This document shows positions 1-47,010 of a stretch of 64,000 nt of DNA, piece after piece. This DNA is from Actinobacteria bacterium HGW-Actinobacteria-4 (GTDB lineage: Bacteria > Actinomycetota > Actinomycetes > Actinomycetales > Demequinaceae), in contig PHEW01000004.1 in NCBI GenBank assembly GCA_002841315.1, forward strand, positions 1 through 64,000. The letters run 5' to 3'. A model generated the notes under the pieces. It made no database searches. It worked only from the letters and a program-made list of their open reading frames with translations, and had not been told where the DNA came from. The first letter of the stretch is position 1. Each line of letters opens with the position of its first letter. Made by a program: the position numbers and the translations under genes.

Positions 1-368
<368 letters not shown>

Positions 369-449
369 ACTATCAAGATCAATGTGTGTAATGCGTCCAC
401 TGTGCGGTTCCCGAGATACGGTCGGGTAACCGAAAGTAACTCCATAGAG

Positions 450-567
450 TTTCCGTAGCCATAGCAAGAGGGAAACGCCCGGTCCCATTCCGAACCCGGA
501 AGCTAAGCCTCTTTGCGCCGATGGTACTGCACTGGAGATGGTGTGGGAGAGTAGGTCGCTGCGGGAC
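450..567 (+). rRNA. rrf: 5S ribosomal RNA
   Basis: A complete 5S rRNA of about 117 nt. The internal hallmark GGTCCCATTCCGAACCCGG is at about 480-498. The closing stem pairs TTCCGTAG (451-458) with CTGCGGGA (559-566). It sits about 80 bp after the 23S end, as the last gene of an rRNA operon, and is followed directly by a strong terminator. Confidence 0.96.
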
Positions 568-33841: not shown

Positions 33842-34276
33842 ATGCAATCCATTTGGTGGTTTGTGGGAGCAATGCTGCTGGGCGTCATCGAGATATTCAC
33901 GCTCGACTTGATGCTGATCATGCTCGCTGGAGGTGCGCTCGCTGCCGGTGTTGCCGCCCTGTTTGGGGCACCGCTGTGGGTGAGCATCATGGTGTTCTGC
34001 CTGGTGTCAGCGATGTTGCTGTTCACCTTGCGGCCGTATCTGTTGAAGGCTTTGCGGTCGCGGGGCGAGGTTATTGAGACCAACGCAGCGGCGCTCGTGG
34101 GTCGCGACGCTCGTGCCATCGACGACATCACCGCGATTGCTGGGCGAGTCAAGCTGGCGGGCGAGGTGTGGTCGGCGCGAATCGTTGACGACGCTGCTGT
34201 CATTCCAGAAGGTTCATCGGTCACTGTGGTGGCCATCAAGGGCGCGACGGCCATCGTTGCGCCGGAAAAGGGGTAG
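33842..34276 (+). CDS. NfeD family membrane protein (short form)
   Basis: A 144-aa NfeD-type protein. Two or three transmembrane helices cover about residues 4-65 (WWFVGAMLLGVIEIFTLDLMLI region), followed by a soluble OB-fold domain (ALVGRDARAIDDITAIAGRV onward). NfeD proteins work with SPFH proteins in membrane microdomains; the SPFH gene starts 5 bp downstream. The start has a strong ribosome binding site, GGAGG, 8 bases before ATG, unlike most first genes here; TAGCGT at about 33818 is a likely -10. Confidence 0.9.
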   Translation: MQSIWWFVGAMLLGVIEIFTLDLMLIMLAGGALAAGVAALFGAPLWVSIMVFCLVSAMLLFTLRPYLLKALRSRGEVIETNAAALVGRDARAIDDITAIAGRVKLAGEVWSARIVDDAAVIPEGSSVTVVAIKGATAIVAPEKG

Positions 34277-34281
34277 AGGCT

Positions 34282-35346
34282 ATGGAGCCTGGTCAGATTA
34301 TTGGAATCGTCGCGCTTGTTGTTCTCGCGATCTTTGTCATCAGCGCCATCGGGCGCGCGGTACGCATTGTGCCGCAGGCAGTGGCAGTGATCGTTGAGCG
34401 ACTGGGGCGTTATAGCCGCACCATGGATGCAGGCCTGCACCTGCTCATTCCGTTCATCGACAAGGTCCGTGCGGGCGTCGACTTGCGCGAGCAAGTGGTG
34501 TCGTTCGCGCCGCAGTCGGTCATTACCTCCGACAACCTGGTGGTCGAGATCGACACCGTCATCTACTTCCAGGTCACCGATCCTCGTGCCGCGGTCTATG
34601 AGATCGCGAATTACATCTTGGGTATCGAGCAGTTGACTACTACCACCATTCGTAACGTCATCGGCACCATGGACCTCGAGCAGACCTTGACGAGCCGTGA
34701 CCAGATCAACGGTCAGCTCCGTGGGGTCCTCGATGAGGCGACCGGCAAGTGGGGCATCCGCGTCAACCGCGTGGAGCTCAAGGCCATTGAGCCGCCCATG
34801 TCGATCAAGGACTCGATGGAGAAGCAGATGCGTGCCGAGCGTGACCGTCGTGCCGCGATCCTTACGGCAGAGGGTGTCAAGCAATCGCAGATCCTCACGG
34901 CAGAAGGTGAGAAGCAGGCCGCGATCCTCACGGCAGAAGGTCAGGCTCAAAGCGCGATCTTGCGCGCTGAGGGTGAGTCGCGGGCTATTTTGCAAGTCTT
35001 TGACGCTATTCACACGGGTGACGCAGACAGCAAGTTGCTCGCGTACCAGTACCTGCAGATGCTTCCCGAGATTGCCAAGAACGACGCCAACAAGATGTGG
35101 TTCATTCCCACGGAGTTCACCGGTGCGCTCAAGGCGGTTTCCGCAGGCTTTGGCCACATCGACGAGCCCGAGGCGCTCACCAAGGGCGCCAACCGCAAGG
35201 CGTACAAGCTCGAATCGGCACTCACTGACCCGCGTGAAGCGCTCGCAGCAGCCAAGCGCGAGGCGGCTGAGGCCACGGAGGACGCCACCGATGCTGGGTC
35301 AAGGTCGGGCCGTCGCCCAGACCCCAACGCGGAAAAGGGCCAGTAG
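34282..35346 (+). CDS. SPFH domain / band 7 protein (stomatin-paraslipin type)
   Basis: A 354-aa membrane-attached protein. One N-terminal transmembrane helix (about 4-24, IIGIVALVVLAIFVISAIG) is followed by the SPFH/band 7 domain (about 28-185, VAVIVERLGRYSRTMDAGLH). A coiled-coil region has four 11-residue repeats beginning ILTAEG (see repeat entry). Such proteins form oligomeric cages in the membrane and often control proteases or fluid domains, together with the NfeD protein encoded just upstream. The C-terminal tail is charged and Ala-rich. A terminator follows at 35366-35399. Confidence 0.92.
   Translation: MEPGQIIGIVALVVLAIFVISAIGRAVRIVPQAVAVIVERLGRYSRTMDAGLHLLIPFIDKVRAGVDLREQVVSFAPQSVITSDNLVVEIDTVIYFQVTDPRAAVYEIANYILGIEQLTTTTIRNVIGTMDLEQTLTSRDQINGQLRGVLDEATGKWGIRVNRVELKAIEPPMSIKDSMEKQMRAERDRRAAILTAEGVKQSQILTAEGEKQAAILTAEGQAQSAILRAEGESRAILQVFDAIHTGDADSKLLAYQYLQMLPEIAKNDANKMWFIPTEFTGALKAVSAGFGHIDEPEALTKGANRKAYKLESALTDPREALAAAKREAAEATEDATDAGSRSGRRPDPNAEKGQ
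34858..34989 (+). repeat. Four 33-bp tandem repeats inside the SPFH gene
   Basis: Four units of 33 bp (34858, 34891, 34924 and 34957) encode 11-residue repeats ILTAEGVKQSQ, ILTAEGEKQAA, ILTAEGQAQSA and ILRAEGESRAI. Units two and three share ATCCTCACGGCAGAAGGT. The 11-residue period suits a right-handed coiled coil, and similar ILxAEG repeats are common in this family, so this is protein architecture and not a mobile or CRISPR repeat. Confidence 0.9.
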
Positions 35347-36255: not shown

Positions 36256-36852
36256 TCATCGGACTCCGCGCGCCGTCAGCGCGTCACCGAGCGCATCCGC
36301 GTGCTTAAGCGAGACCACGAGGAACGGAATCGCGAACAAGCGCAGACTCCGCCCACCGCCCCGGGCGTTCTGCGCCTCGCGTACCTCGCGCTCGAGCCGC
36401 ACGAGCACGGGGAGGGTGCTCAGCGTTACGGCAATTGTCAGCGCCGCGCGCTGTGGATCGACCCGTAGCCGTGCCAATGGCGACAGTCCCCGTTCGAGCG
36501 CTTCTAGGAGTTCGCTCACCGGCGTGGTCAATGCGAGCAGCCCGCTGATGACCACGGCGGCGCAAATCCGAACGGTGTTCGCTACGCCAGTTTCCGCGCC
36601 CAGGAACAGGAGCTGACCAGCGAGAGTCACCGCGAGGATCCAGCGGATGGCGATCCCCTGGCGCACAAGCGCCCCCATCCCTGCCCCACGAACGGCATAG
36701 CAAGCGAGGCAGACCCCAGCAGTCAACGCCGCACCCCACCAGCTCGCCGGAACCACGCTCACGCCGAGCACGATCAGCCCAAGCACCGCGGACTTCCGCC
36801 CCGCGGTGAGTCGGTGCCAAGGGCCGTCGCCGGGTCGGTACAGGGTCAGCAT
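36256..36852 (-). CDS. bioN: ECF transporter T-component (BioN-like)
   Basis: A 198-aa membrane protein, last gene of the bioY operon. It has about four or five transmembrane helices (SAVLGLIVLGVSVVPASWW; VVISGLLALTTPVSELLEAL) and the coupling motif REAQNARGGGRSLR, in which the Ala-Arg-Gly motif contacts the ATPase. It overlaps the ATPase gene by 7 nt. With BioM and BioY it would form a three-part biotin importer. It is shorter than, and clearly different from, the EcfT at 19967-20617. Confidence 0.88.
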   Translation of the reverse strand: MLTLYRPGDGPWHRLTAGRKSAVLGLIVLGVSVVPASWWGAALTAGVCLACYAVRGAGMGALVRQGIAIRWILAVTLAGQLLFLGAETGVANTVRICAAVVISGLLALTTPVSELLEALERGLSPLARLRVDPQRAALTIAVTLSTLPVLVRLEREVREAQNARGGGRSLRLFAIPFLVVSLKHADALGDALTARGVR

Positions 36853-37532
36853 CGGAGCCTCTCTTCATAGGCCGCGATGGTCGCGTCAGGCGGTCCGACG
36901 GCGACGATGGTTCCGTCGTGTACCAGGACTGCGCTGTCGCAGCGTTGGGCGAGGGTCATGTCGTGCGTCACCAACAGCAATCGATGCGCCCCTTCCTCAA
37001 AGAGGTGGTCCGCAACGCGACGGGCGTTGCGTGCATCAAGATACGCAGTCGGTTCGTCAGCGATCACCAAATCAGGACGGCGGACGAACGCGCCGCACAG
37101 CGCGAGCAGTTGCTTCTGCCCGCCGGACAGGTCGTGAGATGCGTGATCTGCGACGGCGGTGAGACCGAACCTTTCCAAGGCTTCGGTGACTCTTTGCGCC
37201 TTCTCCTCGCGCGGCAGCTTCTCAGACCGCAATGAGAACGCGACATCCTCGATCACGGTAGGCATCACGATCTGGGTGTCGGGATTGCTGAACACGACGG
37301 CGATGCGGCGCCGGAGTCTGGAGGCATCCTGGGCGGGGTCAAGGCCAAGGATCCGGATCGCGCCGCTCTCGGCGCGGGCGAGCCCTCCAACCAGGCGCGC
37401 AAATGTGGACTTGCCGGACCCGTTCTCGCCGATGACGGCAACAGTGCGTTGGTCTAGCGAACACGTCACGTTGCGGAGCACCTGCGTGTCCCCAAGGCGC
37501 ACGTGGACGTCGTCCAGGTCGAGGTAGCTCAT
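36846..37532 (-). CDS. bioM: ECF transporter ATPase (BioM-like)
   Basis: A 228-aa ABC ATPase. Walker A is VIGENGSGKSTFARL (about 33-47), the Q-loop is FSNPDTQIVMPTVIEDV, the signature is LSGGQKQLLALCG, Walker B is LVIADEPTAYLDA, and the switch His is in LLVTHDMTLA. ATG 37532 overlaps the thiolase stop (ATGA); a longer frame to 37673 lies inside the thiolase gene. It powers the adjacent EcfT/BioY pair by its operon position. Confidence 0.9.
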   Translation of the reverse strand: MSYLDLDDVHVRLGDTQVLRNVTCSLDQRTVAVIGENGSGKSTFARLVGGLARAESGAIRILGLDPAQDASRLRRRIAVVFSNPDTQIVMPTVIEDVAFSLRSEKLPREEKAQRVTEALERFGLTAVADHASHDLSGGQKQLLALCGAFVRRPDLVIADEPTAYLDARNARRVADHLFEEGAHRLLLVTHDMTLAQRCDSAVLVHDGTIVAVGPPDATIAAYEERLRC

Positions 37533-38656
37533 CGCAACACCTCCACCACAGCGGCGACGCCCATCCCGCCGCCGACGGAGGCCGCCGCGACTCCGAGGGT
37601 TCCCGGACGTGCCCCGCCACGCACCAGTCGGCTGAACAGCCGCACCACGCTGACCGCGCCGCTCGCCCCCCACGGATGTCCCAGCGCGAGTGCGCCGCCG
37701 TCGGCGCAGACGCGCGGATCGTCGTCGGCGAGACCGATGCGGTCGAGTACCGCGAGCGACTGCGAAGCGAACGCTTCGACGATCTCGATGGCGGTAACGT
37801 CGCCAATCTTGACGCTGGCGTTCTCGAGTGCCGCGATCACCGCTGGTGCCGCGCCTATTCCTGGCAAGGCCGGGTCGCAGCCGACAATCGCATAGCCGCG
37901 GATCACTAGGCCCGCCGCTCCGCCTCTGAGGTGGTGCGGGACGACGGCAACGGTTGCGGCACCATCGCTGATCCGCGTCGACGTCCCCGCAGTGACGGTG
38001 CCGCCCGGGAACAGAGGGAGTAGACGCGCCAGCAGCGGCTCGGCTACACCGATCGAGTCGTCGGAGGCAACGCCGTCCAGCGTCACGATCTCGGCATCGA
38101 ACCGTCCGTTGTCGCGTGCCTCGCGAGCCCGTTGGTGGCTACGCGCGGCGTGCGCGTCCTGTCGATCTCGCGTGATTCCATCTGCCCTGGACAGGTCCTC
38201 AGCGGCTTGCAGCATGTCAGGATCGGGCCAGCCCGCTGGCGCAAACGGTGCTCGCTCGTAGGGCACGCCGTCGATGGATCTGGTGGGAGCAGTCGAACCG
38301 CTCTCGACGCCGCCGGCGATGCGCGCACGGTGGTCCCCGGCGCGGATTGCAGACACCGCGTCGATGATGGCAGCGAGGCCGCTGCCGCACTGTCGATCCA
38401 CAGTTGTGCCAGGCACGCTAACGTCAAGCCCGGCGGCGAGGGCGCTGATGCGCGCGGGGTTGCCTCCAGGCCCCATGCAGTTTCCAAGGATGACGTCGGC
38501 GATGGTGAGCGTCGATCCGGTGGCGGCTTCCGCGTCGGCGAGAGCGGCGCGGATGATCGGTCCGGCCAGCTGGTCAACAGTGAGATCGGACAGGGCGCGG
38601 CTACGGGTGCCGATTGGTGAGCGCCGCGCGGCAACGATGACTGGCTCGTCACGCAA
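37529..38656 (-). CDS. Thiolase family protein with altered active site (YhfS-like)
   Basis: A 375-aa thiolase-fold protein. The nucleophile Cys90 (VDRQCGSG) and His327 (GGALALGHPWGASGA) are present. The Asn of the usual NEAF motif is Val293 (IVEAFA), and the second catalytic Cys of the C-x-GGG motif is Ser360 (ASVGGGMG). Ordinary acetoacetyl-CoA thiolase activity is therefore doubtful. It overlaps the ligase and the ATPase genes. Bacillus subtilis has a similar biotin-regulated set, yhfU (BioY), yhfT (ligase) and yhfS (thiolase), whose job is unknown; handling of a biotin precursor acyl chain is a reasonable guess. Confidence 0.88.
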   Translation of the reverse strand: MRDEPVIVAARRSPIGTRSRALSDLTVDQLAGPIIRAALADAEAATGSTLTIADVILGNCMGPGGNPARISALAAGLDVSVPGTTVDRQCGSGLAAIIDAVSAIRAGDHRARIAGGVESGSTAPTRSIDGVPYERAPFAPAGWPDPDMLQAAEDLSRADGITRDRQDAHAARSHQRAREARDNGRFDAEIVTLDGVASDDSIGVAEPLLARLLPLFPGGTVTAGTSTRISDGAATVAVVPHHLRGGAAGLVIRGYAIVGCDPALPGIGAAPAVIAALENASVKIGDVTAIEIVEAFASQSLAVLDRIGLADDDPRVCADGGALALGHPWGASGAVSVVRLFSRLVRGGARPGTLGVAAASVGGGMGVAAVVEVLR

Positions 38657-39770
38657 GGCGGGTCACCTCGCTGTCGAGGACCTGACGCCGAGCTTCCGCT
38701 CGCGCGGGCTTGCCGGATGCAGTTCGTGGCAGTCGCCCCGCGAACCACACGCGTGGCCGGTGAGAGGGCGCGAACTGGGTCGCAGCCATGGAGCGGAGCT
38801 GGCTAGCGGTCGGGGGCGGGGCCTCAGCATCCATTTCGACCATCGCGGCGACCAGCGCGCCAACGGTACCGGCGGGAATCCCGAACACCACCGCGTCGGC
38901 AATTCCGGGGAGCGTCCTGAGGCCCGCTTCGACGTCGTCAGGAATCACCGTGGCCGATGCTGTGAGAATGGCGTCGTCGGCCCGCCCGCGTAGCATCAGG
39001 ACACCGTCGTCGAGGGTTGCGAGGTCGCCGACCGTCACCCAGGCTCCGTCGGCGCGCAACGGACCCGGCTGACCCAGGTAACCGAGCGCGGTATATGGCG
39101 AGCGGACCCACAACTCGCCGTCCCTCGCCTCCATCGTCACGCCGGGAAAGGCGCGCAGTCCCCGGCCCTCATCCATGGCAACAAACGATAATTCCGCCGC
39201 CCCGTAGTACGAGAGAACCCGGACACCTCGAGACTCCGCGTCCGCGCGTAGCCCTGGATCAAGGCGGGACCCGCCAACCAGAGCGGTCTGTAGCTCCGGG
39301 AGAGAGCCTGCGTTGAGCATCGTCCGTAGCGCCTGTGGCGTGCCGTGGAACAGGGTTGCTTCCGCAGCGGCGCTCTGCCCGGGGAAGACTGGCTGCGGCC
39401 CACTCCCGGCGAGCGCGTGGGCGAGAGAGTACAGGGTCAGCGAGGACGCTGGAGGGGACGGCAGCATGATCAACTGCTCCGTGCCGCCCCGTTGGGAGAC
39501 CAGATTGGATACCGGGGCGAAGGACCGCTCCCACGATGCTGCGGTGCGCAACACGATGCGAGCAGTCCCGCTCGTTCCCGACGTGAGACCTGCCCAGGCT
39601 GCGCCGTGCGGGATGGGGCCTGCTGTGGCGAGTTCACGCACCGCAGCCCACTGTGCCGCAGGCCACCGGTCGTCACCGATGAGCGGGACGTCGCCAGCGG
39701 CGCGCACGGCCCGAATCCGGTCTATCAGTTGGACCGGCGAGCCCTGCAACACCACGATCCGCGCGCTCAT
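38649..39770 (-). CDS. Compact AMP-forming acyl-CoA ligase-like protein (YhfT-like)
   Basis: A 373-aa member of the adenylate-forming superfamily. Motifs: P-loop GLTSGTSGTARIVLRT (about 61-76, Lys replaced by Arg/Val), VLSYYGAAELSFV (Tyr-Gly-x-x-Glu), GDLATLDDGVLMLRGRADD (ribose-binding Asp and hinge), and C-terminal catalytic block PRTASGKPARAEARR with the Lys. It is about 100 residues shorter than usual at the N-terminus: the start ATG 39770 overlaps the bioY stop (ATGA) and a longer frame would lie inside bioY. It probably activates a fatty acid, perhaps pimelate-like, for the thiolase downstream. Substrate is unproven. Confidence 0.87.
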   Translation of the reverse strand: MSARIVVLQGSPVQLIDRIRAVRAAGDVPLIGDDRWPAAQWAAVRELATAGPIPHGAAWAGLTSGTSGTARIVLRTAASWERSFAPVSNLVSQRGGTEQLIMLPSPPASSLTLYSLAHALAGSGPQPVFPGQSAAAEATLFHGTPQALRTMLNAGSLPELQTALVGGSRLDPGLRADAESRGVRVLSYYGAAELSFVAMDEGRGLRAFPGVTMEARDGELWVRSPYTALGYLGQPGPLRADGAWVTVGDLATLDDGVLMLRGRADDAILTASATVIPDDVEAGLRTLPGIADAVVFGIPAGTVGALVAAMVEMDAEAPPPTASQLRSMAATQFAPSHRPRVWFAGRLPRTASGKPARAEARRQVLDSEVTRLA

Positions 39771-40393
39771 TGTGCTGCGGTGACACTCACGGGGTTGGGC
39801 TCTCGGGGCGAAAGCCATGTGCGCCGGAACGCACGGGGGTAGGCGCGCAGGAGCGTGGCTATGGTCATTGTCGCGAGCGCTGCCTTCACAAGGTCCATAG
39901 GGACGAACACCAGGTTCAGCAGTGCGATCTGCCCCAGCGACAGGCCCTCGATCAGGCTCCGCACCGGGATACCGACGGCGTAGACCACGAGAATACCGCC
40001 TACGACCATGCCGATCGCGATTCGCCACACGGCGGGTTTACGGGCCGATGCGTGCACGATGAGGCCCACCACGAGCGCCCCGGCGATCCAGCCAAAGAGG
40101 TACCCCGCCGACGGCGCGACAAACCAGCTAACGCCGCCACGCCCGCCGGCTAGGAGAGGGAGCCCCACCGCGACGAGGGCGAGAAAGACGATCATGCACA
40201 GGGCTCCCAGCCGTGGGCCAAGAATCGCGCCGGCGAGCATGACGCCGAACGTCTGCGCGGTGATCGGCACGCTGCCGAACACGCTGAAGGCTCCCGGTAG
40301 GCCGAGCGCGGCCATGAGGGCAACAAAGACGGCGACGCGGGCAATGTCCGTCGCATCGAGCACCCACGTGCGTGGCCGGTGGTCGTCAATCAT
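39767..40393 (-). CDS. bioY: Biotin transporter S-component BioY
   Basis: A 208-aa membrane protein with about six transmembrane helices. BioY landmarks are FGSVPITAQTFGVMLAGAILGPRLGALCMIVFLALVAVG and PLLAGGRGGVSWFVAPSAGYLFGW, containing the residues around the biotin pocket. ATG 40393 is preceded by AGGGAGAG, a good ribosome binding site; the longer open frame to 40933 runs through the operators and the TetR gene and is not real. It is the first gene of the five-gene minus-strand operon bioY-ligase-thiolase-ecfA-ecfT. Two palindromes at 40410-40437 lie just upstream. Confidence 0.93.
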   Translation of the reverse strand: MIDDHRPRTWVLDATDIARVAVFVALMAALGLPGAFSVFGSVPITAQTFGVMLAGAILGPRLGALCMIVFLALVAVGLPLLAGGRGGVSWFVAPSAGYLFGWIAGALVVGLIVHASARKPAVWRIAIGMVVGGILVVYAVGIPVRSLIEGLSLGQIALLNLVFVPMDLVKAALATMTIATLLRAYPRAFRRTWLSPREPNPVSVTAAQ

Positions 40394-40409
40394 CGTCTCT
40401 CCCTCTACC

Positions 40410-40437
40410 TGAACGTTGTTCACCTGAACGGTGTTCA
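40410..40437. promoter_or_regulatory. Two tandem TGAAC-N3-GTTCA palindromes, probable BioQ operators
   Basis: Two perfect 13-bp palindromes, TGAACGTTGTTCA (40410-40422) and TGAACGGTGTTCA (40425-40437), are spaced 15 bp centre to centre. They lie between divergent bioY and the TetR gene. Next to them CACTATAGTG (40439-40448) is itself palindromic and gives a TATAGT -10 on each strand. The half-site agrees with the motif reported for the actinobacterial TetR biotin repressor BioQ, as I recall it. Binding is inferred. Confidence 0.75.
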
Positions 40438-40453
40438 TCACTATAGTGGCGAC

Positions 40454-41083
40454 ATGGCCGTTTCGGGGACAGCGCGCAGACGAAGCCGCGATGACGTCTC
40501 CGAGATGGCCCTGCGCCTCCTGGATGAATACGGATTGCCCGATCTCACCATGCGGCATCTCGCGACCGCCCTTGGCGTTCAGCAGAGCGCTTTGTACTGG
40601 CATTTCCCCAATAAGCAAGCGCTTCTCGCGGCAGTGAGCGAACGGGTTCTCGCGCCGATGGGCGAGGTACCGGTGGGCGGATTGTCCATGTACGACGCAG
40701 TGCGCGTGGTGGGTGCGAGGTTGCGCGAGTGCCTGCTTGCGTACCGGGATGCCTCCGAACTTGTGTCGAGCTCCCTCGCTTTGGGGCTGGTGAACTCGCC
40801 CGTGCGACCCGCGTTGATGGACGTTGCCCGCCACCAAGGTGTGCCCAGTTCGCTGGCGGAGGTGGCCGCCGATGCCGTGACGCACTTCGTGGTCGGCTTC
40901 ACGTTCCATGAGCAGCAACGGCTGGCGGCGCACCGACTCGGACTACTGCAGGAGCCGCTTGTCCCGAGTTCCGCAGCGGCGGGCGCGAATCCCAGTGTCG
41001 ACGGCGGCTTTTCCGAGGCGCTGACGATGATCGGGCACGGCCTCGACGTGTCCATCACCGAGTACAGGAGCCTGCGGCACTAG
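40454..41083 (+). CDS. bioQ: TetR family regulator, probable biotin repressor BioQ
   Basis: A 209-aa TetR-type repressor. The HTH is LTMRHLATALGVQQSALYWHFPNKQALLAAV (about residues 30-60). The C-terminal ligand domain resembles the TetR_C class. ATG 40454 is 6 bases after TATAGT (40442-40447), so the message is probably leaderless; the larger frame to 40379 reads across both operators. Divergent placement from bioY and the paired palindromes suggest that it represses both itself and the bioY operon. BioQ function is inferred from context and operator shape. Confidence 0.82.
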   Translation: MAVSGTARRRSRDDVSEMALRLLDEYGLPDLTMRHLATALGVQQSALYWHFPNKQALLAAVSERVLAPMGEVPVGGLSMYDAVRVVGARLRECLLAYRDASELVSSSLALGLVNSPVRPALMDVARHQGVPSSLAEVAADAVTHFVVGFTFHEQQRLAAHRLGLLQEPLVPSSAAAGANPSVDGGFSEALTMIGHGLDVSITEYRSLRH

Positions 41084-41137
41084 CTCTGAAGCCCTCCATT
41101 TGACATGTCATCCAGTGTCGGAGTCTACTGAGATAAT

Positions 41138-41151
41138 CGAACATGTGTTCG
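41138..41151 (+). promoter_or_regulatory. LexA (SOS) box of the mutasome operon
   Basis: CGAACATGTGTTCG matches the Gram-positive/actinobacterial SOS box GAAC-N4-GTTC at every defined base. It lies 14 bp upstream of the imuA' start and directly after a possible promoter (TTGACA at 41100-41105 and TCTACT at 41124-41129). LexA bound here would block initiation. The downstream genes are classic SOS genes, which supports it strongly. Confidence 0.9.
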
Positions 41152-41165
41152 ATTGGAGGACTGCG

Positions 41166-41930
41166 ATGACGGCTGAATCAACCCTGAGTGCCGAGGCTCT
41201 GGCGGCTGACCGTCTGCAGCGCGCGCGGGCAGCGCTCCAGGGTGTCGAGGTCCGCATGGGCGCACCATCGCAGGGTTGGCAGGCACCCACATTCCCGTGT
41301 GCGGAAAACCTTGAGGCGGTGATTCCAGCAGGGCTCCGGCGCGGCCAGGTGGTGTCGGTCACGGGATCCACCTCGCTGATGCTTGCGCTGGTGGCGGAGG
41401 CTTCGCGTGACGGGGCGTGGACCGCGATGATCGGCATGCCCCACGTGGGAGTGGTCGCTGCGTCGCGGCGCGGGATCGAACTCAGCCGGTTGGCGCTGGT
41501 TCCGTACCCAGGGGTTCACGCGGCGGCGGCTGCAGGCGCATGCCTCGAAGGCATGGAGGTAGTGCTGCTGGGAGAAGGGCTTGCGCTGTCCTTTGCTGAC
41601 CGGCGCCGGCTCATGACGCGCGTGCGGGAACGCGGCGCCGTGCTGGTGGTGGCGGGACCGTGGGAGGGGGCTCACACCTCGCTCACGGTGGAGTCTCACC
41701 GCTGGCTCGGGCTGGGCGCTGGGGACGGGCGGCTGCGCGAGCGGCAGCTCACTGTTGCGGTGGGAGGGCGCGCTCACGGCAATGCCCGGCGGGTGACGCT
41801 CACGCTCGATGAAGACTCGGGCGCGCGCTGGGTGCGTCCCGGGGTGCGCCAAACGCTCGGTGTACATCAAACCCTCGGTGTGAATCAAACCCTCGGTGTG
41901 AATCAAACACTTGACGAAGGCGTGGCATGA
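41166..41930 (+). CDS. imuA': ImuA' (SOS mutasome accessory, RecA/SulA-like)
   Basis: A 254-aa RecA-fold-related protein, first gene of the imuA'-imuB-dnaE2 operon. Blocks include LEAVIPAGLRRGQVVSVTGS (degenerate P-loop region), SRLALVPYPG and LLVGRAHGN-like basic strand. ATG 41166 has GGAGG upstream (41156-41160) and follows the SOS box. The C-terminus is unusual: four hexapeptide-like copies beginning QTLG (about residues 229-251) make a repetitive tail (see repeat entry). It overlaps imuB by 4 nt. In mycobacteria ImuA' and ImuB link DnaE2 to translesion synthesis. Confidence 0.88.
   Translation: MTAESTLSAEALAADRLQRARAALQGVEVRMGAPSQGWQAPTFPCAENLEAVIPAGLRRGQVVSVTGSTSLMLALVAEASRDGAWTAMIGMPHVGVVAASRRGIELSRLALVPYPGVHAAAAAGACLEGMEVVLLGEGLALSFADRRRLMTRVRERGAVLVVAGPWEGAHTSLTVESHRWLGLGAGDGRLRERQLTVAVGGRAHGNARRVTLTLDEDSGARWVRPGVRQTLGVHQTLGVNQTLGVNQTLDEGVA
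41850..41915 (+). repeat. 18-bp tandem repeat coding for the ImuA' tail
   Basis: Units start at 41850, 41868, 41886 and 41904 (the last partial). Units two and three are identical (CAAACCCTCGGTGTGAAT); unit one differs by a few bases. They encode QTLGVH, QTLGVN, QTLGVN, QTLDEG. The near-identity points to recent expansion by slippage, and copy number is likely to vary between strains. Confidence 0.92.
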
Positions 41931-43573
41931 GCGCGCCAGCCGTTGTGGTGACGGTGCGCAGGGCGGTGTTGTGGGTTCCCGACTGGCCGGTAGTGGCAGC
42001 CATGGTCGCGGCAGGGGTGGGGGCCGATGCTCCGGCGGCTGTGCTTCACGGGCGCGGACTTGTCGCGGTGTCGGCGGCGGCACGCAGGTCGGGGGTCAAG
42101 CGCGGCATGCGCAAGCGGGTTGCCCAGCGCACCTGCCCCGAGGTGGAGCTGTTGCCCCACGACGAAGGCCGCGATGCGCGGGAGTTCGAGGCCGTGGCAG
42201 CCGCGGCCGAACGCGTGGTCGCTGGCGTCGAGATCTCTCGCCCTGGCCTGTTGATGATTCCCGCTGACGGTGCCGCCCGCTTTCATGGCTCGGAAGAGGC
42301 CTTGGCCGAGGCGCTCGTCACCGAGGTGGCCGCTGCCGGATACGAGTGCGCGGTGGGGGCCGCAGACGGACTGTTGGCGGCGATCATGGCCGCGAGGAGC
42401 TCGGCGTTGGTGCCGGCAGGGCACTCGCAAGAGTTCCTGGCGCCTGCGGGCGTGCAGTCGCTGAGCCTGGCCGCGATGGAGCGCACTCAGCGCACCGCCG
42501 TGGATGATCTCGCGAGTGTGCTGACCCGGCTGGGGATATACACCCTGCGCGACTTCACCGCGTTGCCAGCGGGCGACGTGCTCGCGCGCTTTGGCCAGGT
42601 GGGGATGTGGGCGTACCGGATTGCCCGTGGCGAAGATGTGCGCCCGCCGGTACTGCGCCGGGCCGAGGAAGACATCGCGGTGGAGTACGTGTTCGAGGAT
42701 CCAGCTCAGCGCGTGGAACAGCTCGCGCTTGTGGCGGGGCTGGTCGCGGGGCAGCTGGACCAGGCGCTGCTCGATGCTGGGGTGAGGTGCGGCAAGGTGA
42801 GGATTACGGCGCGCACTGAACGCGGCGAGAGCCTCGAGCGGGTGTGGCGCACTGATGTGGGCTCGCGCGCGGGGGCGTTCGGGCGGCACATGACGGATCG
42901 CGTGAGGTGGCAGCTCGAGGGCTGGCTGTCCGGCACCGGGCAGGGTGGTGGGCCGGAGCCCGCGCCGCTCATGTCGCTGGGAGTCACGGCCGAAGACGTG
43001 GTCGCTCTGGGCGCTGAGCAGAACTATCTGTGGGGAGGCACCTCCGGAGCCGATTCCCGCGCCGCGCGCTCGCTGGACCGCGTGCAGGGGCTGCTGGGTG
43101 CCGAGGGAGTACTGACGGTGAGCGAGCAGGGCGGCAGGTCTCCGCGGGACAGGGTGCTGGCGCTCGCGTGGGGGCAAGAGGCTCCACCTGCACGCAAGGT
43201 GGCCCACCCGTGGCCAGGCCGCATTCCTGACCCCGCCCCGGCCACCGTCCTGGCGATTCCGGAGCCCATTGCGGTGCTCGATGCCGGCGGCTCGCCCGTG
43301 GTCGTCAACCGGCGGCTTGCCCTGAGTGCCCCACCCACCTGGGTGAGGCACCTGGTGACCTCGCCCAAGCATCGGCGGCCTGACGAGGGCGGACCCATCT
43401 ACGGGGAAGTAGTGCCCGTGGACTCGTGGGCGGGGCCATGGCCGGTGGTCGAGCGGTGGTGGTCTGAAGACGGCTCGCGTAGCGCCTACCTCCAGGTGGC
43501 GCTCGATGACGGCCCGGCGCTGTTGGTGGCGTTCAGCGACGGTGGCTGGGTGCTCGAGGCGATCTATGACTGA
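41927..43573 (+). CDS. imuB: ImuB (catalytically inactive Y-family polymerase-like mutasome hub)
   Basis: A 548-aa DinB-related protein. The palm region (VLWVPDWPVVAAMVAA) lacks the acidic metal ligands of active Y-polymerases, as in all ImuB. The little-finger part spans about 235-345. A clamp-binding motif QNYLWG is at residues 365-370, matching the QxxLW-type beta-clamp motif expected in ImuB. The C-terminal 130 residues contain SAPPTWVRHL and a WW block (VVERWWSEDGSRSAYLQVAL) typical of the family. It overlaps imuA' by 4 nt and is followed 26 bp later by dnaE2. Confidence 0.93.
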   Translation: MSAPAVVVTVRRAVLWVPDWPVVAAMVAAGVGADAPAAVLHGRGLVAVSAAARRSGVKRGMRKRVAQRTCPEVELLPHDEGRDAREFEAVAAAAERVVAGVEISRPGLLMIPADGAARFHGSEEALAEALVTEVAAAGYECAVGAADGLLAAIMAARSSALVPAGHSQEFLAPAGVQSLSLAAMERTQRTAVDDLASVLTRLGIYTLRDFTALPAGDVLARFGQVGMWAYRIARGEDVRPPVLRRAEEDIAVEYVFEDPAQRVEQLALVAGLVAGQLDQALLDAGVRCGKVRITARTERGESLERVWRTDVGSRAGAFGRHMTDRVRWQLEGWLSGTGQGGGPEPAPLMSLGVTAEDVVALGAEQNYLWGGTSGADSRAARSLDRVQGLLGAEGVLTVSEQGGRSPRDRVLALAWGQEAPPARKVAHPWPGRIPDPAPATVLAIPEPIAVLDAGGSPVVVNRRLALSAPPTWVRHLVTSPKHRRPDEGGPIYGEVVPVDSWAGPWPVVERWWSEDGSRSAYLQVALDDGPALLVAFSDGGWVLEAIYD

Positions 43574-43599
43574 GGCTGCATCATGAACGAGGGCGCGAG

Positions 43600-46500
43600 A
43601 TGACGCAGCCCGTGGAGTGCGTCGAGTACGCCGAGCTCCATGCTCACAGTGCTTTCAGCTTCCTGGACGGCGCGAGCCAGCCCGAAGAGATGGCCGCGGA
43701 GGCTGGCCGGCTGGGCCTCAGCGCGCTCGCCATCACCGATCACGATGGCCTTTACGGCGCGGTGCGGTTCGCCAACGCGGCGCGTGCGGTGGGACTGCCC
43801 ACGGTGTTCGGAGCGGAACTGCACCTTCCCGCGCCCGTGGGTCCAGGCGGCGCGCCCGTGCTGGACGCGCCCACGGGAGTGCCCGACCCTCGCTCGACCC
43901 ACCTGGTGGTGCTCGCGCGCGGCCCCGCCGGGTACGCGCGGCTCAGCCACGCGATCGGCATGGGACACCTGGCCGCAGGGGAGAAGGGCGCGGCTCACTA
44001 CACGCTCGAATCCCTCGCGGAGCAGGCAGCGGGGCAGTGGCTGGTCTTGACGGGGTGCCGCAAGGGCGCGGTACGCAGGGCGCTTGCCGGCATCGGCGTG
44101 CCCGGAGCGAGCCTCAATGGCGCCGATGCCATGGCCGGGGCGGTCTCGCGCGAGGGCTTTGCGGCGGCGCGGGCGGAGGTGGACAGATTGGTCGCGCTAT
44201 TCGGCCACGACAACGTCGCGGTGGAGATCACTGAGGGCGGCGATCCCTTCGACTCGGAGCGCAACGCCGCCCTCGCGGACCTTGCCTTCGACGCCGGGCT
44301 ACCGCTCGTGGCAACCACCAACGCCCATTACGCAACCCCTCGCGATGCGGACCTCGCGGCGGCGCTGGCTGCGGTGCGAGCCCGCTCCTCGCTGGATGAG
44401 ATGGACGGCTGGCTCCCAGCATCGTCCGGACTGCACCTGCGTAGCGCCGCAGAAATGCTCTACCGCCACCGGCGCCACCCCCAAGCGGTGACCACGGCCG
44501 CGAAGCTCGCCGCCGAATGCGCCTTTGACCTTCATCTGGTGGCACCTAACCTGCCGCCCTACCCGGTCCCTGAAGGGCATAACGAGGCCTCGTGGCTGCG
44601 AGAACTCACGCGTCGCGGCGCCACCGAGCGCTACGGTTCGCGCGAAGCAGAGCGGGTTCCGGGGGCCTGGAAGCAGATCGACCGCGAGCTGGACGTGATC
44701 GAGGCGCTCGACTTTCCCGGCTACTTCCTGATCGTTCACGACATCGTGAGCTTCTGCCGCGAGAACGACATCCTGTGCCAGGGGCGCGGCTCGGCTGCCA
44801 ACAGCGCTGTGTGTTACGCGCTAGGAGTGACCGCGGTGGATGCCGTCACCCACGGACTGCTGTTCGAGCGCTTCTTGGCTGCCGAACGCGACGGGCCGCC
44901 AGACATCGACGTGGACATCGAGTCGGACCGCCGCGAAGAGGTGATCCAGTACGTGTTCCAGCGCTTTGGGCGCATCAATGCCGCGATGGTCGCGAACGTC
45001 ATCCAGTACCGGCCACGCTCCGCCGTGCGAGACGCCGCGAAGGCGCTGGGATACGACGTGGGCCAGCAGGACGCGTGGTCCTCGAGCATCGACCGGTGGG
45101 GAGACCTGCGCGTGCCGGTGGAGGCCCAGCAGGAGTGGGCAGCCAAGCAGCGCGACGCGATGTGGCCTGAGCCGCCTCCCACGAGCGACCTTGACCACAT
45201 CCCCGCGCCAGTGCTGGACCTCGCGGACCGCTTCATGCGGCTCCCGCGACACCTGGGGATTCACCCCGGCGGCATGGTGCTGTGCGACCGGCCCGTCATT
45301 GACGTGTGCCCCGTGGAATGGGGGCGCATGCCCGGGCGCACCGTGCTCCAGTGGGACAAAGACGATTGCGCCGATGCCGGGCTCGTGAAGTTCGATCTGC
45401 TGGGGCTCGGGATGCTCTCGGCGCTCAAGTACGCCTTTGGGTACATCCGCGAGACCCAGGGCCTTGAGGTGGGCCTGCATTCACTGCCCCAAGAGGACCC
45501 CGAGGTCTACGACCTCCTGTGCGCCGCTAACACCGTTGGCGTGTTTCAGGTGGAGTCACGTGCGCAGCAGGCCACACTGCCGCGCCTGCGCCCGCGTCGG
45601 TTCTACGACATCGTGATCGAGGTGGCGCTGATCCGCCCTGGTCCCATCCAGGGCGGTGCGGTCCACCCCTATATCAATCGCGTGAGGGGACGCGAGGAGG
45701 TCACCTACCTGCACCCGTTGCTTGAGCCGGCCCTCAAGAAGACCATGGGCATCCCGTTGTTCCAAGAGCAGCTGATGCAGATGGCGATGGACGCGGCAGG
45801 GTTCGACGGCACCCTCGCTGACCAGTTGCGCCGGGCGATGGGCTCCAAGCGCAGCCCGGAGCGCATGGAGGCGCTGCGTGCGCGCTTCCTGGTGGGTGCC
45901 AACGGGAAGGGCGTCCCGGCGGACGTAGCGCTCCAGATCTTCGACAAACTCAAAGCCTTTGCGGACTTTGGCTTTCCCGAGTCTCACTCGTTCTCCTTTG
46001 CCTACTTGGTCTATGCGTCCTCGTGGCTCAAGGTGCGCCAGCCCGCCGCGTTCTACGCGGGACTGCTTGCCGCCCAGCCCATGGGGTTCTACTCGCCGCA
46101 GTCGTTGGCCGCCGATGCCCGCCGTCACGGCCAGACGGTGCTGCGCCCGTGCGTGACGCGCTCCGAGGTGTTGGCCCGCGTGGAACGGCTTGAGGAGCCG
46201 GCACCGGAGCCGGGGGAGCGGCGCGAGGATCTGGCGCGGTTGTCCCACGTTGACCCCACGCTCGCGGTGCGCATGGGTCTCGTCGCGGTGCGCGGGCTCG
46301 GCAAGGATGCCGCGCAGGCCATTGTGGACGCTCGCGCTGACGGGCCGTTCGTGTCCGTCACTGACATGGCGCGGCGGGTGAGGGTGAGGCCGGCTGGGGT
46401 CAAGGGCGAGGCCGGGCTTGCACCCGAACGCGGGCTCACTACCGCTCAGTGGGAGACGCTTGCCACGGCGGGCGCGCTCGAGTCGCTGGGAATCACCCGG

Positions 46501-47010
46501 CGCGAGGGGCTGTGGGCCGCGGGTGCGTTGTCCCGCGAGGGCCCGGACACGCTCGAAGGGGCTTCCACCGGAATCCAGGCGCCCACACTGCCAGGCATGA
46601 GCATGGTAGAGCAGGCGGTTGCCGACGTCTGGGCGGCCGGAGTGTCCCCGGACAGCTACCCCACGGTGTTTGTGCGTGAAGGGCTCGACAAGCACGGCGT
46701 GCTGCGCGTCAAAGACGTCATCACCCACGAGGCCGAGCGGCGCATCACCGTGGCTGGAGTAGTCACTCACCGTCAGCGACCCGGCACCGCACGCGGCGTC
46801 ACGTTCCTGTCCCTCGAGGACGAGACAGGCTTCTTGAACGTGATCTGCTCGGTGGGGGTGTGGAAGAGGTTCCAGGCGGTGGCGCGGCGGTCACCGGGAC
46901 TCGTGGTGCGCGGGCGCATCGAACGCGCCGACGGCGCCACCAACCTGGTGGCCGAACACCTGGCACCGCTGTCCCTCAAAGTGGCAACCACCTCGCGCGA
47001 CTTTCGCTGA
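43600..47010 (+). CDS. dnaE2: Error-prone DNA polymerase DnaE2
   Basis: A C-family replicative-type polymerase of 1136 aa used for damage-induced mutagenesis. The PHP domain starts with AELHAHSAFSFLDGASQPEE. The active site contains GRGSAANSAVCYALGVTAVD and PPDIDVDIESDRREE with the metal-binding Asp pair. GIHPGGMVLCDRPVIDVCP, fingers (FGFPESHSFSFAYLVYASSWL) and a C-terminal OB domain (ITVAGVVTHRQRPGTARGVTFLSLED) are in the usual order. The C-terminal beta-clamp motif of DnaE1 is not apparent, consistent with dependence on ImuB. Regulated by the SOS box upstream of imuA'. Confidence 0.96.
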   Translation: MTQPVECVEYAELHAHSAFSFLDGASQPEEMAAEAGRLGLSALAITDHDGLYGAVRFANAARAVGLPTVFGAELHLPAPVGPGGAPVLDAPTGVPDPRSTHLVVLARGPAGYARLSHAIGMGHLAAGEKGAAHYTLESLAEQAAGQWLVLTGCRKGAVRRALAGIGVPGASLNGADAMAGAVSREGFAAARAEVDRLVALFGHDNVAVEITEGGDPFDSERNAALADLAFDAGLPLVATTNAHYATPRDADLAAALAAVRARSSLDEMDGWLPASSGLHLRSAAEMLYRHRRHPQAVTTAAKLAAECAFDLHLVAPNLPPYPVPEGHNEASWLRELTRRGATERYGSREAERVPGAWKQIDRELDVIEALDFPGYFLIVHDIVSFCRENDILCQGRGSAANSAVCYALGVTAVDAVTHGLLFERFLAAERDGPPDIDVDIESDRREEVIQYVFQRFGRINAAMVANVIQYRPRSAVRDAAKALGYDVGQQDAWSSSIDRWGDLRVPVEAQQEWAAKQRDAMWPEPPPTSDLDHIPAPVLDLADRFMRLPRHLGIHPGGMVLCDRPVIDVCPVEWGRMPGRTVLQWDKDDCADAGLVKFDLLGLGMLSALKYAFGYIRETQGLEVGLHSLPQEDPEVYDLLCAANTVGVFQVESRAQQATLPRLRPRRFYDIVIEVALIRPGPIQGGAVHPYINRVRGREEVTYLHPLLEPALKKTMGIPLFQEQLMQMAMDAAGFDGTLADQLRRAMGSKRSPERMEALRARFLVGANGKGVPADVALQIFDKLKAFADFGFPESHSFSFAYLVYASSWLKVRQPAAFYAGLLAAQPMGFYSPQSLAADARRHGQTVLRPCVTRSEVLARVERLEEPAPEPGERREDLARLSHVDPTLAVRMGLVAVRGLGKDAAQAIVDARADGPFVSVTDMARRVRVRPAGVKGEAGLAPERGLTTAQWETLATAGALESLGITRREGLWAAGALSREGPDTLEGASTGIQAPTLPGMSMVEQAVADVWAAGVSPDSYPTVFVREGLDKHGVLRVKDVITHEAERRITVAGVVTHRQRPGTARGVTFLSLEDETGFLNVICSVGVWKRFQAVARRSPGLVVRGRIERADGATNLVAEHLAPLSLKVATTSRDFR

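What the first reader, a model, noticed from the sequence alone, without database searches (positions are those of the whole stretch)
36256..40437. Biotin-type locus merging a yhfUTS-like set with its own ECF module
One minus-strand operon carries bioY, a compact acyl-CoA ligase, a thiolase, an ECF ATPase and an EcfT, each overlapping or abutting the next. Bacillus subtilis has the biotin-regulated yhfU-yhfT-yhfS (BioY2, ligase, thiolase) without dedicated EcfAT. Here the ligase and thiolase are cotranslated with a complete transporter, suggesting that uptake and activation of a biotin precursor (for example a pimelate-like acid) or a related acyl compound are coupled. This pairing is the best candidate in the window for an incompletely described pathway.
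Basis: partly seen in the sequence, partly recalled or inferred. Interest (0 to 1): 0.7.

Follow-up and report, generated by a model that had tools for sequence, protein, structure and literature searches.

The report
Biotin-uptake operon with acyl-activating enzymes
A bacterium in which we found none of the biotin-making genes we tested carries a biotin importer joined in one operon with two acid-processing enzymes, and the pattern across bacteria suggests that the pair may repair damaged biotin rather than make it from scratch.

Summary
The five genes are as described: bioY, an AMP-forming acyl ligase, a thiolase-fold enzyme, bioM (EcfA) and bioN (EcfT), overlapping by 4, 8, 4 and 7 bp. The arrangement recurs across Actinomycetota; the ligase-thiolase pair also lies near bioY in Bacillota (yhfUTS type) and Alphaproteobacteria. 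The pimelate idea fails in this host: no BioB, BioF or BioD match, and in a sample of 149 genomes of the order 25 of 28 carriers lack BioB. The 'thiolase' is not a normal one: the base cysteine (Cys378 of Zoogloea) is gone in 105 of 105 readable family members, while 24 of 24 other thiolases from seven of these genomes keep it. In three Paenibacillus loci the pair is followed by hotdog/MaoC, FabG-like and FabK-like genes, in genomes without a BioB match. Best reading: uptake and activation of a ring-intact biotin relative, then two-carbon chain extension (for example bisnorbiotin to biotin). Chemistry is inferred, not shown. Against it: a review reports B. subtilis YhfT as a fatty-acid-activating enzyme, so a lipid role stays a close rival.

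The parts
39767..40393 (-). bioY, S component of a biotin-type ECF transporter (208 aa)
   Evidence: Pfam BioY 3.2e-33; the only BioY match of the genome
38649..39770 (-). compact AMP-forming acyl ligase, YhfT-like (373 aa); adenylation motifs and C-terminal Lys kept
37529..38656 (-). thiolase-fold enzyme, YhfS-like (375 aa): Cys90 (38387-38389) and His327 (37676-37678) kept; Asn316-equivalent is Val293 (37778-37780), Cys378-equivalent is Ser360 (37577-37579)
36846..37532 (-). bioM, ECF ATPase (228 aa)
   Evidence: Pfam ABC_tran; best NCBIfam model ECF_ATPase_1, under its cut-off
36256..36852 (-). bioN, EcfT transmembrane component (198 aa)
   Evidence: Pfam CbiQ 1.3e-13
40410..40422 (.). BioQ-type operator, exact TGAAC-N3-GTTCA, 16 bp upstream of the bioY start
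   Evidence: consensus read in PMC3398298
40425..40437 (.). second BioQ-type operator, exact, 16 bp upstream of the TetR start
40454..41083 (+). TetR-family regulator, divergent, BioQ candidate
   Evidence: Pfam TetR_N, TetR_C_1 (read from 40457); best PDB sequences 5xs9, 5yek, 5yej at 6e-25 to 8e-25 (that these are M. smegmatis BioQ is recalled)

Best explanation
A BioQ-controlled biotin-scavenging operon. BioYMN imports biotin and, by inference, ring-intact relatives with a damaged side chain. The ligase adenylates the side-chain carboxylate and passes it to CoA or, as a review reports for B. subtilis YhfT, to an acyl carrier protein. The thiolase-fold enzyme takes the acyl group on Cys90 and acts as a condensing enzyme that adds two carbons; because its base cysteine is missing, the donor is more likely a malonyl thioester (decarboxylation makes the carbanion) than acetyl-CoA. 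Reduction, dehydration and a second reduction follow, by housekeeping fatty-acid enzymes in this host, and by operon-borne hotdog/MaoC, SDR and FabK-like enzymes in some Paenibacillus. The net result would be repair of truncated biotin, for example bisnorbiotin to biotin. Shown here: gene order, operators, missing biotin synthesis matches, family-wide loss of the base cysteine, the extra genes in Bacillota loci. Inferred: every substrate and every reaction. The confidence is for this specific mechanism; that the pair does not serve pimelate use in this host is much safer (about 0.85).
For: Exact BioQ palindromes upstream of bioY here and in 16 of 64 named loci with a bioY match, against 0.2 expected from shuffles. 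In the host: one BioY, one BirA, no BioB, BioF or BioD match, so an import that is to yield biotin must already carry the ring. BioB is missing in 25 of 28 carriers of the order sample, the host among them, and in 22 of 50 named carriers tested, out of 80 found. Bacillota: of 16 named loci, 5 carry two hotdog/MaoC ORFs plus an SDR (L087, L092, L115, L118, L120) and 3 of these also a FabK-like gene (L087, L115, L120); 4 of the 5 and 3 of the 3 genomes lack a BioB match, against 1 of the other 11 and 2 of the other 13 (Fisher 0.013 and 0.018, not corrected for kinship, and three of the five are Paenibacillus). Together these are the enzyme types of one fatty-acid elongation round (MaoC and SDR types also occur elsewhere). 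Cys90 kept in 107 of 107, Cys378-equivalent lost in 105 of 105 readable; 24 of 24 other thiolases of seven of the genomes keep it. At E 1e-10 the host has no other thiolase and no 3-hydroxyacyl-CoA dehydrogenase.
Against: No reaction or substrate is shown. A review says that B. subtilis YhfT forms acyl adenylates of fatty acids, no CoA thioesters, and serves surfactin synthesis (PMC10988940, passages): direct biochemistry for a fatty-acid substrate in a relative. In the host's branch Asn316 is also replaced (V here; 54 of 106 readable members keep N), which weakens any carbon-carbon chemistry and fits plain acyl transfer as well. No reductive partner adjoins the cassette in the actinobacterial, alphaproteobacterial or cyanobacterial loci, going by matches to the Bacillota genes (L083 and L099 have a MaoC match 3-4 kb away, L070 a short SDR match at the edge), nor in 3 of 16 Bacillota loci (L097, L101, L121). 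Many carriers do have BioB (28 of 50). Whether BioY takes bisnorbiotin is unknown. In the listings I saw no paper on bacterial bisnorbiotin use. B. subtilis YhfU has been reported as a pantothenate transporter subunit (PMC11487621, passages).
Confidence: 0.3

Rival explanations
1. Biotin-starvation lipid response. When biotin is short, acetyl-CoA carboxylase fails; the ligase and its partners activate or elongate outside fatty acids to spare biotin.
For: A review reports that B. subtilis YhfT adenylates fatty acids and hands them to ACP for surfactin, and that its loss lowers surfactin (PMC10988940, passages; also PMC9936203, passages). FabG-, FabK- and MaoC-like partners are fatty-acid enzyme types. 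Papers call the S. [quoted passage not shown]
Against: A malonyl-independent condensation needs the base that is missing in every readable family member. It does not explain why the pair sits between bioY and bioMN, nor the link of the elongation genes with BioB loss.
Confidence: 0.26
2. Acyl transfer only. The ligase activates biotin (or a vitamer) and the thiolase-fold enzyme passes it from Cys90 to an unknown acceptor, or stores or traps it in the cell. No carbon-carbon bond is made.
For: Cys90 and His327 are kept, while both the base cysteine and, in the host's branch, the oxyanion-hole Asn are lost. No reductive genes adjoin the actinobacterial operons. The host lacks a 3-hydroxyacyl-CoA dehydrogenase match.
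Against: Does not explain the dehydratase, ketoreductase and enoyl-reductase genes in Paenibacillus loci; no acceptor is known.
Confidence: 0.2
3. Pimelate or glutarate feeding: the pair makes or activates a pimeloyl precursor for de novo biotin synthesis.
For: Many Bacillota carriers have BioB (11 of 16); a two-carbon extension of glutaryl-CoA would give a pimeloyl chain, as BioZ does (recalled).
Against: 25 of 28 order carriers, the host among them, lack BioB; the host lacks BioF and BioD matches. No E. coli-type BioA/B/C/D/F hit in any of 80 loci.
Confidence: 0.06
4. Pantothenate route: the BioY relative imports pantothenate and the ligase activates its carboxyl group.
For: B. subtilis YhfU was renamed PanU after genetic tests (PMC11487621, passages).
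Against: The host has a single BioY, has BirA but no BioB, and has BioQ-type sites at the operon.
Confidence: 0.05
5. Breakdown of the biotin side chain by beta-oxidation for carbon.
For: Ligase plus thiolase is the usual start and end of beta-oxidation.
Against: No 3-hydroxyacyl-CoA dehydrogenase match in the host (26 of 28 carriers do have one); thiolysis needs the lost cysteine; biotin-type repression points to supply, not disposal.
Confidence: 0.04

Closest known systems
Bacillus subtilis yhfU-yhfT-yhfS and Staphylococcus yhfT-yhfS (BirA regulon)
   Same: Same families in the same order; the window thiolase forms one clade with seven Bacillota relatives and shares the lost base cysteine with all 16 Bacillota loci. 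B. subtilis 168's own proteins were not fetched.
   Different: Compact ligase (373 aa; the Bacillota ones listed are mostly about 450-525), own bioMN, BioQ-type instead of BirA control, Val and Ser at the two active-site positions (Asn and Gly in the 16 Bacillota loci).
Corynebacterium glutamicum bioYMN with BioQ
   Same: Dedicated BioYMN transporter, TetR-type BioQ and the TGAAC-N3-GTTCA operator (PMC3398298, abstract start and passages).
   Different: An operon of bioY, bioM and bioN only, as named there; C. glutamicum is an auxotroph with the later ring-assembly steps (same abstract) and gives BioB and BioD matches (controls).
Sinorhizobium meliloti bioY(bioB)-SMc00965-SMc00966
   Same: BioY, AMP-binding and thiolase genes that change together in expression (PMC12445080, passages); the Sinorhizobium and Ensifer loci here show the same order.
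   Different: Linked there to NolR; function not discussed in the passages seen.
Fatty-acid elongation enzymes (FabG, HadAB/MaoC, FabK)
   Same: Paenibacillus loci carry these types after the pair.
   Different: The condensing enzyme would be a thiolase-fold protein of a biotin-linked cassette.
Canonical thiolases (AtoB, FadA, Zoogloea)
   Same: Full fold, nucleophilic Cys and catalytic His.
   Different: Base cysteine and, in this branch, oxyanion Asn are replaced; residues 143-153 read WPDPDMLQAAE where AtoB and FadA have their usual motif.

Membership tests
BioMNY-type ECF biotin transporter | BioY, EcfT and EcfA genes in one operon | tested here: met
BioMNY-type ECF biotin transporter | transports biotin | not testable with these tools
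   single BioY in a genome without a BioB match makes it likely
BioQ regulon | TGAAC-N3-GTTCA palindrome upstream of bio genes | tested here: met
   two exact copies 15 bp apart
BioQ regulon | regulator is a BioQ orthologue | tested here: inconclusive
   best PDB sequences 5xs9/5yek/5yej, recalled as BioQ; the listing says only TetR family; TetR matches with similar operators next to bioY in L048, L049, L093
YhfS family as a clade | groups with Bacillota YhfS-type proteins, apart from other thiolases | tested here: met
   31 family rows (of 108 at hand) against 26 others, one branch, support 100/99
NCBIfam PRK06690 / PRK07638 (that these are YhfS and YhfT is inferred) | score above curated cut-off | tested here: not met
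   273 of 498 bits and 89 of 518 bits; the four Bacillota proteins tested also fall short
Canonical thiolase | nucleophile Cys89 and His348 | tested here: met
   Cys90, His327
Canonical thiolase | base Cys378 (role read in PMC3406046) | tested here: not met
   Ser360; 0 Cys in 105 readable members
Canonical thiolase | oxyanion-hole Asn316 (or His) | tested here: not met
   Val293 here; N in 54 of 106 readable members
Pimelate-dependent biotin synthesis | BioF, BioD, BioB in the genome | tested here: not met
   BioA not tested
Truncated-biotin salvage (proposed) | ligase and condensing enzyme act on bisnorbiotin | not testable with these tools
   needs enzymology

The most novel reading that the evidence does not exclude
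The BioY-ligase-thiolase cassette is an undescribed vitamin-repair pathway that rebuilds the side chain of truncated biotin by one round of two-carbon elongation, with a thiolase-fold enzyme that has lost its base cysteine and works as a decarboxylating condensing enzyme; it lets biotin auxotrophs live on biotin breakdown products.
Probability: 0.26. Interest if true: 0.87.

Novelty: new variant of a known kind. Interest (0 to 1): 0.6.

Why it matters
yhfT and yhfS are known members of the biotin regulon whose role there is not explained in the papers seen; they are called putative fatty acid ligase and acetyltransferase. The comparison here narrows the question: in carriers without BioB the substrate cannot usefully be pimelate, and the 'thiolase' annotation is chemically doubtful for the whole clade. 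If the repair reading holds, biotin breakdown products would be usable vitamers for many soil, plant and animal-associated bacteria, which would change predictions of who depends on whom for biotin. Even if the lipid rival is right, it would explain why a fatty-acid enzyme pair is wired to biotin supply.

Tried and rejected
Pimelate feeding: rejected for this host. Beta-oxidation: rejected for this host, no 3-hydroxyacyl-CoA dehydrogenase match and only one thiolase. BioF as a second marker in Bacillota and others was inconclusive: 20 of 21 genomes match, 6 over the cut-off, with relatives scoring close to it, two of these six (L118, L120) in genomes without BioB; so I rely on BioB. Upstream of bioY, BirA-like sites came in 2 of 64 loci (L101, L121; 0.1 expected) and BioR-like sites in 2 of 64 (L086, L118, both Bacillota; 1.6 expected, so chance); these two motif forms are recalled and crude. 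Rfam found no riboswitch in the window. Literature: in the listings of searches, and in the passages read from them, I saw no paper that gives the pair a function in biotin metabolism; YhfT is linked to surfactin, and the one mention of the word in PMC11089781 is bisnorbiotinol as a selection agent. The library holds open-licence papers only; three ids I tried, meant as the BirA regulon, BioMNY and ECF papers, were not held. Structure models confirm folds only.

Limits: one search scored at most 13 candidates a genome, so 28 carriers is a lower bound, and 'no thiolase' in congeners means none at E 1e-60 among those scored. Not counted: position 360 in L098 and L105, position 293 in L109, where no residue was aligned; L109 (frame broken) gives the one non-His at 327 and was left in at 360. 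In one search, 30 of 31 thiolase matches had a locus; the 31st is the family member L009. The upstream stretch of L053 was only 34 bases. Shuffles were mononucleotide.
Full report
Observation. Upstream of bioY, between it and a divergent TetR gene, lie two exact copies of the published BioQ palindrome TGAAC-N3-GTTCA (consensus in PMC3398298, passages). The TetR protein's best sequence matches among solved structures are 5xs9, 5yek and 5yej, which I recall as Mycobacterium smegmatis BioQ.

Host. The window lies in a 2.52 Mb genome, 98.75% complete. It has one BioY, one BirA, no BioB at E 1e-40, no BioF at 1e-20, no BioD at 1e-5, and at 1e-10 one thiolase, this one, and no 3-hydroxyacyl-CoA dehydrogenase. 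So it looks like a biotin auxotroph without beta-oxidation. BioA was not tested.

Origin in this genome. None of 10 congeners sampled has the thiolase at E 1e-60, while 10 of 10 have BioY. In the 5 congeners whose loci I could read, BioY is followed by bioM and bioN with nothing between, and its identity to the window's BioY is only 32-38%. The closest named relatives are from Promicromonospora: up to 83% for the thiolase and 78% for the ligase. The five-gene operon was therefore probably acquired from elsewhere and stands in for a three-gene one (inference). Operon GC is 0.68 against 0.65 for the window.

Conservation. In 149 genomes of the order, 28 (the host included) have the thiolase at E 1e-60 or better, and all 28 have BioY, against 134 of 149 overall. 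Of the 27 relatives, 26 have the ligase next to it and 24 have bioM and bioN, two of these on the opposite strand. A scan of public genomes kept 80 named loci: a ligase match in 79, bioY in 64, and bioY, ligase, bioM and bioN together in 50. They include Actinomycetota, Bacillota such as Paenibacillus, Bacillus and Staphylococcus, Alphaproteobacteria, one cyanobacterium and one gammaproteobacterial draft; a record titled Marinimicrobia may be mislabelled. No locus had an E. coli-type BioA, B, C, D or F hit at 1e-4.

Regulation. An exact BioQ palindrome lies upstream of bioY in 16 of 64 named loci, 0.2 expected from shuffles. In Bacillota the corresponding genes are reported BirA targets (PMC4016012, PMC6391492 and PMC7235819, passages). 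Different biotin regulators thus seem to control the same cassette, which ties it to biotin.

Biotin synthesis. Of the 28 order carriers, 3 have BioB (G005, G062, G085), and 14 of 121 non-carriers do, no difference. BioD is in 2 of 28. BioF is over the cut-off in 0 of 28, with lower-scoring matches in 17. Among 50 of the 80 named carriers, BioB is in 28. The cassette therefore does not need, and in the order sample does not follow, biotin synthesis.

Partners in Bacillota. Of 16 Bacillota loci, 5 (L087, L092, L115, L118, L120) carry two hotdog/MaoC-type ORFs and an SDR after the thiolase; L086 and L094 have the SDR alone; L114 has the hotdog pair alone. The five Staphylococcus loci have two small ORFs with weak hotdog similarity; two such ORFs that I tested had no Pfam match. 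L097, L101 and L121 have none of these. L087, L115 and L120 also have a FabK-like gene; the one tested scores 287 against a cut-off of 453. In L115 the locus reads bioY, ligase, thiolase, hotdog, MaoC, SDR, two ECF ATPases, EcfT, a small ORF, then the FabK-like ORF, cut by the end of the locus. L087 and L120 have no bioY match in the stretch fetched. The reductive set goes with lack of BioB: 4 of 5 against 1 of 11; for FabK 3 of 3 against 2 of 13. The genomes are related, so the Fisher values of 0.013 and 0.018 overstate the evidence.

Mechanism. Ligase, condensing enzyme, ketoreductase, dehydratase and enoyl reductase make one round of chain extension. In a cell without BioB the product can only help biotin supply if the substrate already has the ring. 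The known biotin breakdown products bisnorbiotin and tetranorbiotin (side chain shorter by two and four carbons; recalled) fit. The missing base fits a decarboxylating condensation, as in ketosynthases (established knowledge of the superfamily), and does not fit an acetyl-CoA-dependent one. I put this at three in ten, because no substrate is shown, the host's branch has also lost the Asn, and the one relative with reported biochemistry acts on fatty acids. Close rivals are a lipid response to biotin shortage and plain acyl transfer without carbon-carbon bond formation.

Against my reading, told fully: YhfT's fatty-acid activity; YhfU of B. subtilis was found needed for high-affinity pantothenate uptake (PMC11487621, passages); 28 of 50 named carriers have BioB; most loci lack the reductive genes.

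Noticed in passing
window 41100-47010 (+): Next to the TetR gene: a 276 aa ORF without a Pfam match, an ImuB-like Y-family polymerase (Pfam IMS) and a 1136 aa ORF, which together look like an imuA-imuB-dnaE2 mutagenesis cassette (first and last by position and size only).
   Followed up: partly
window 33842-35346 (+): NfeD-like gene followed by an SPFH/Band 7 gene.
   Followed up: partly
window 1-567 (+): End of a 23S rRNA gene and a 5S rRNA gene.
   Followed up: no
L056, L059, L060, L061, L063, L064, L065, L070, L074, L083: In Nocardia and Rhodococcus loci a second acyl-ligase match (28-36%) lies just after bioN.
   Followed up: no
L109: [Actinomadura] parvosata record: the thiolase frame is broken between two matching pieces.
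   Followed up: no
L162, L163, L164, L167, L168: Congeners of the host carry bioY-bioM-bioN with a distant BioY and no ligase or thiolase between.
   Followed up: partly
   Followed up: partly
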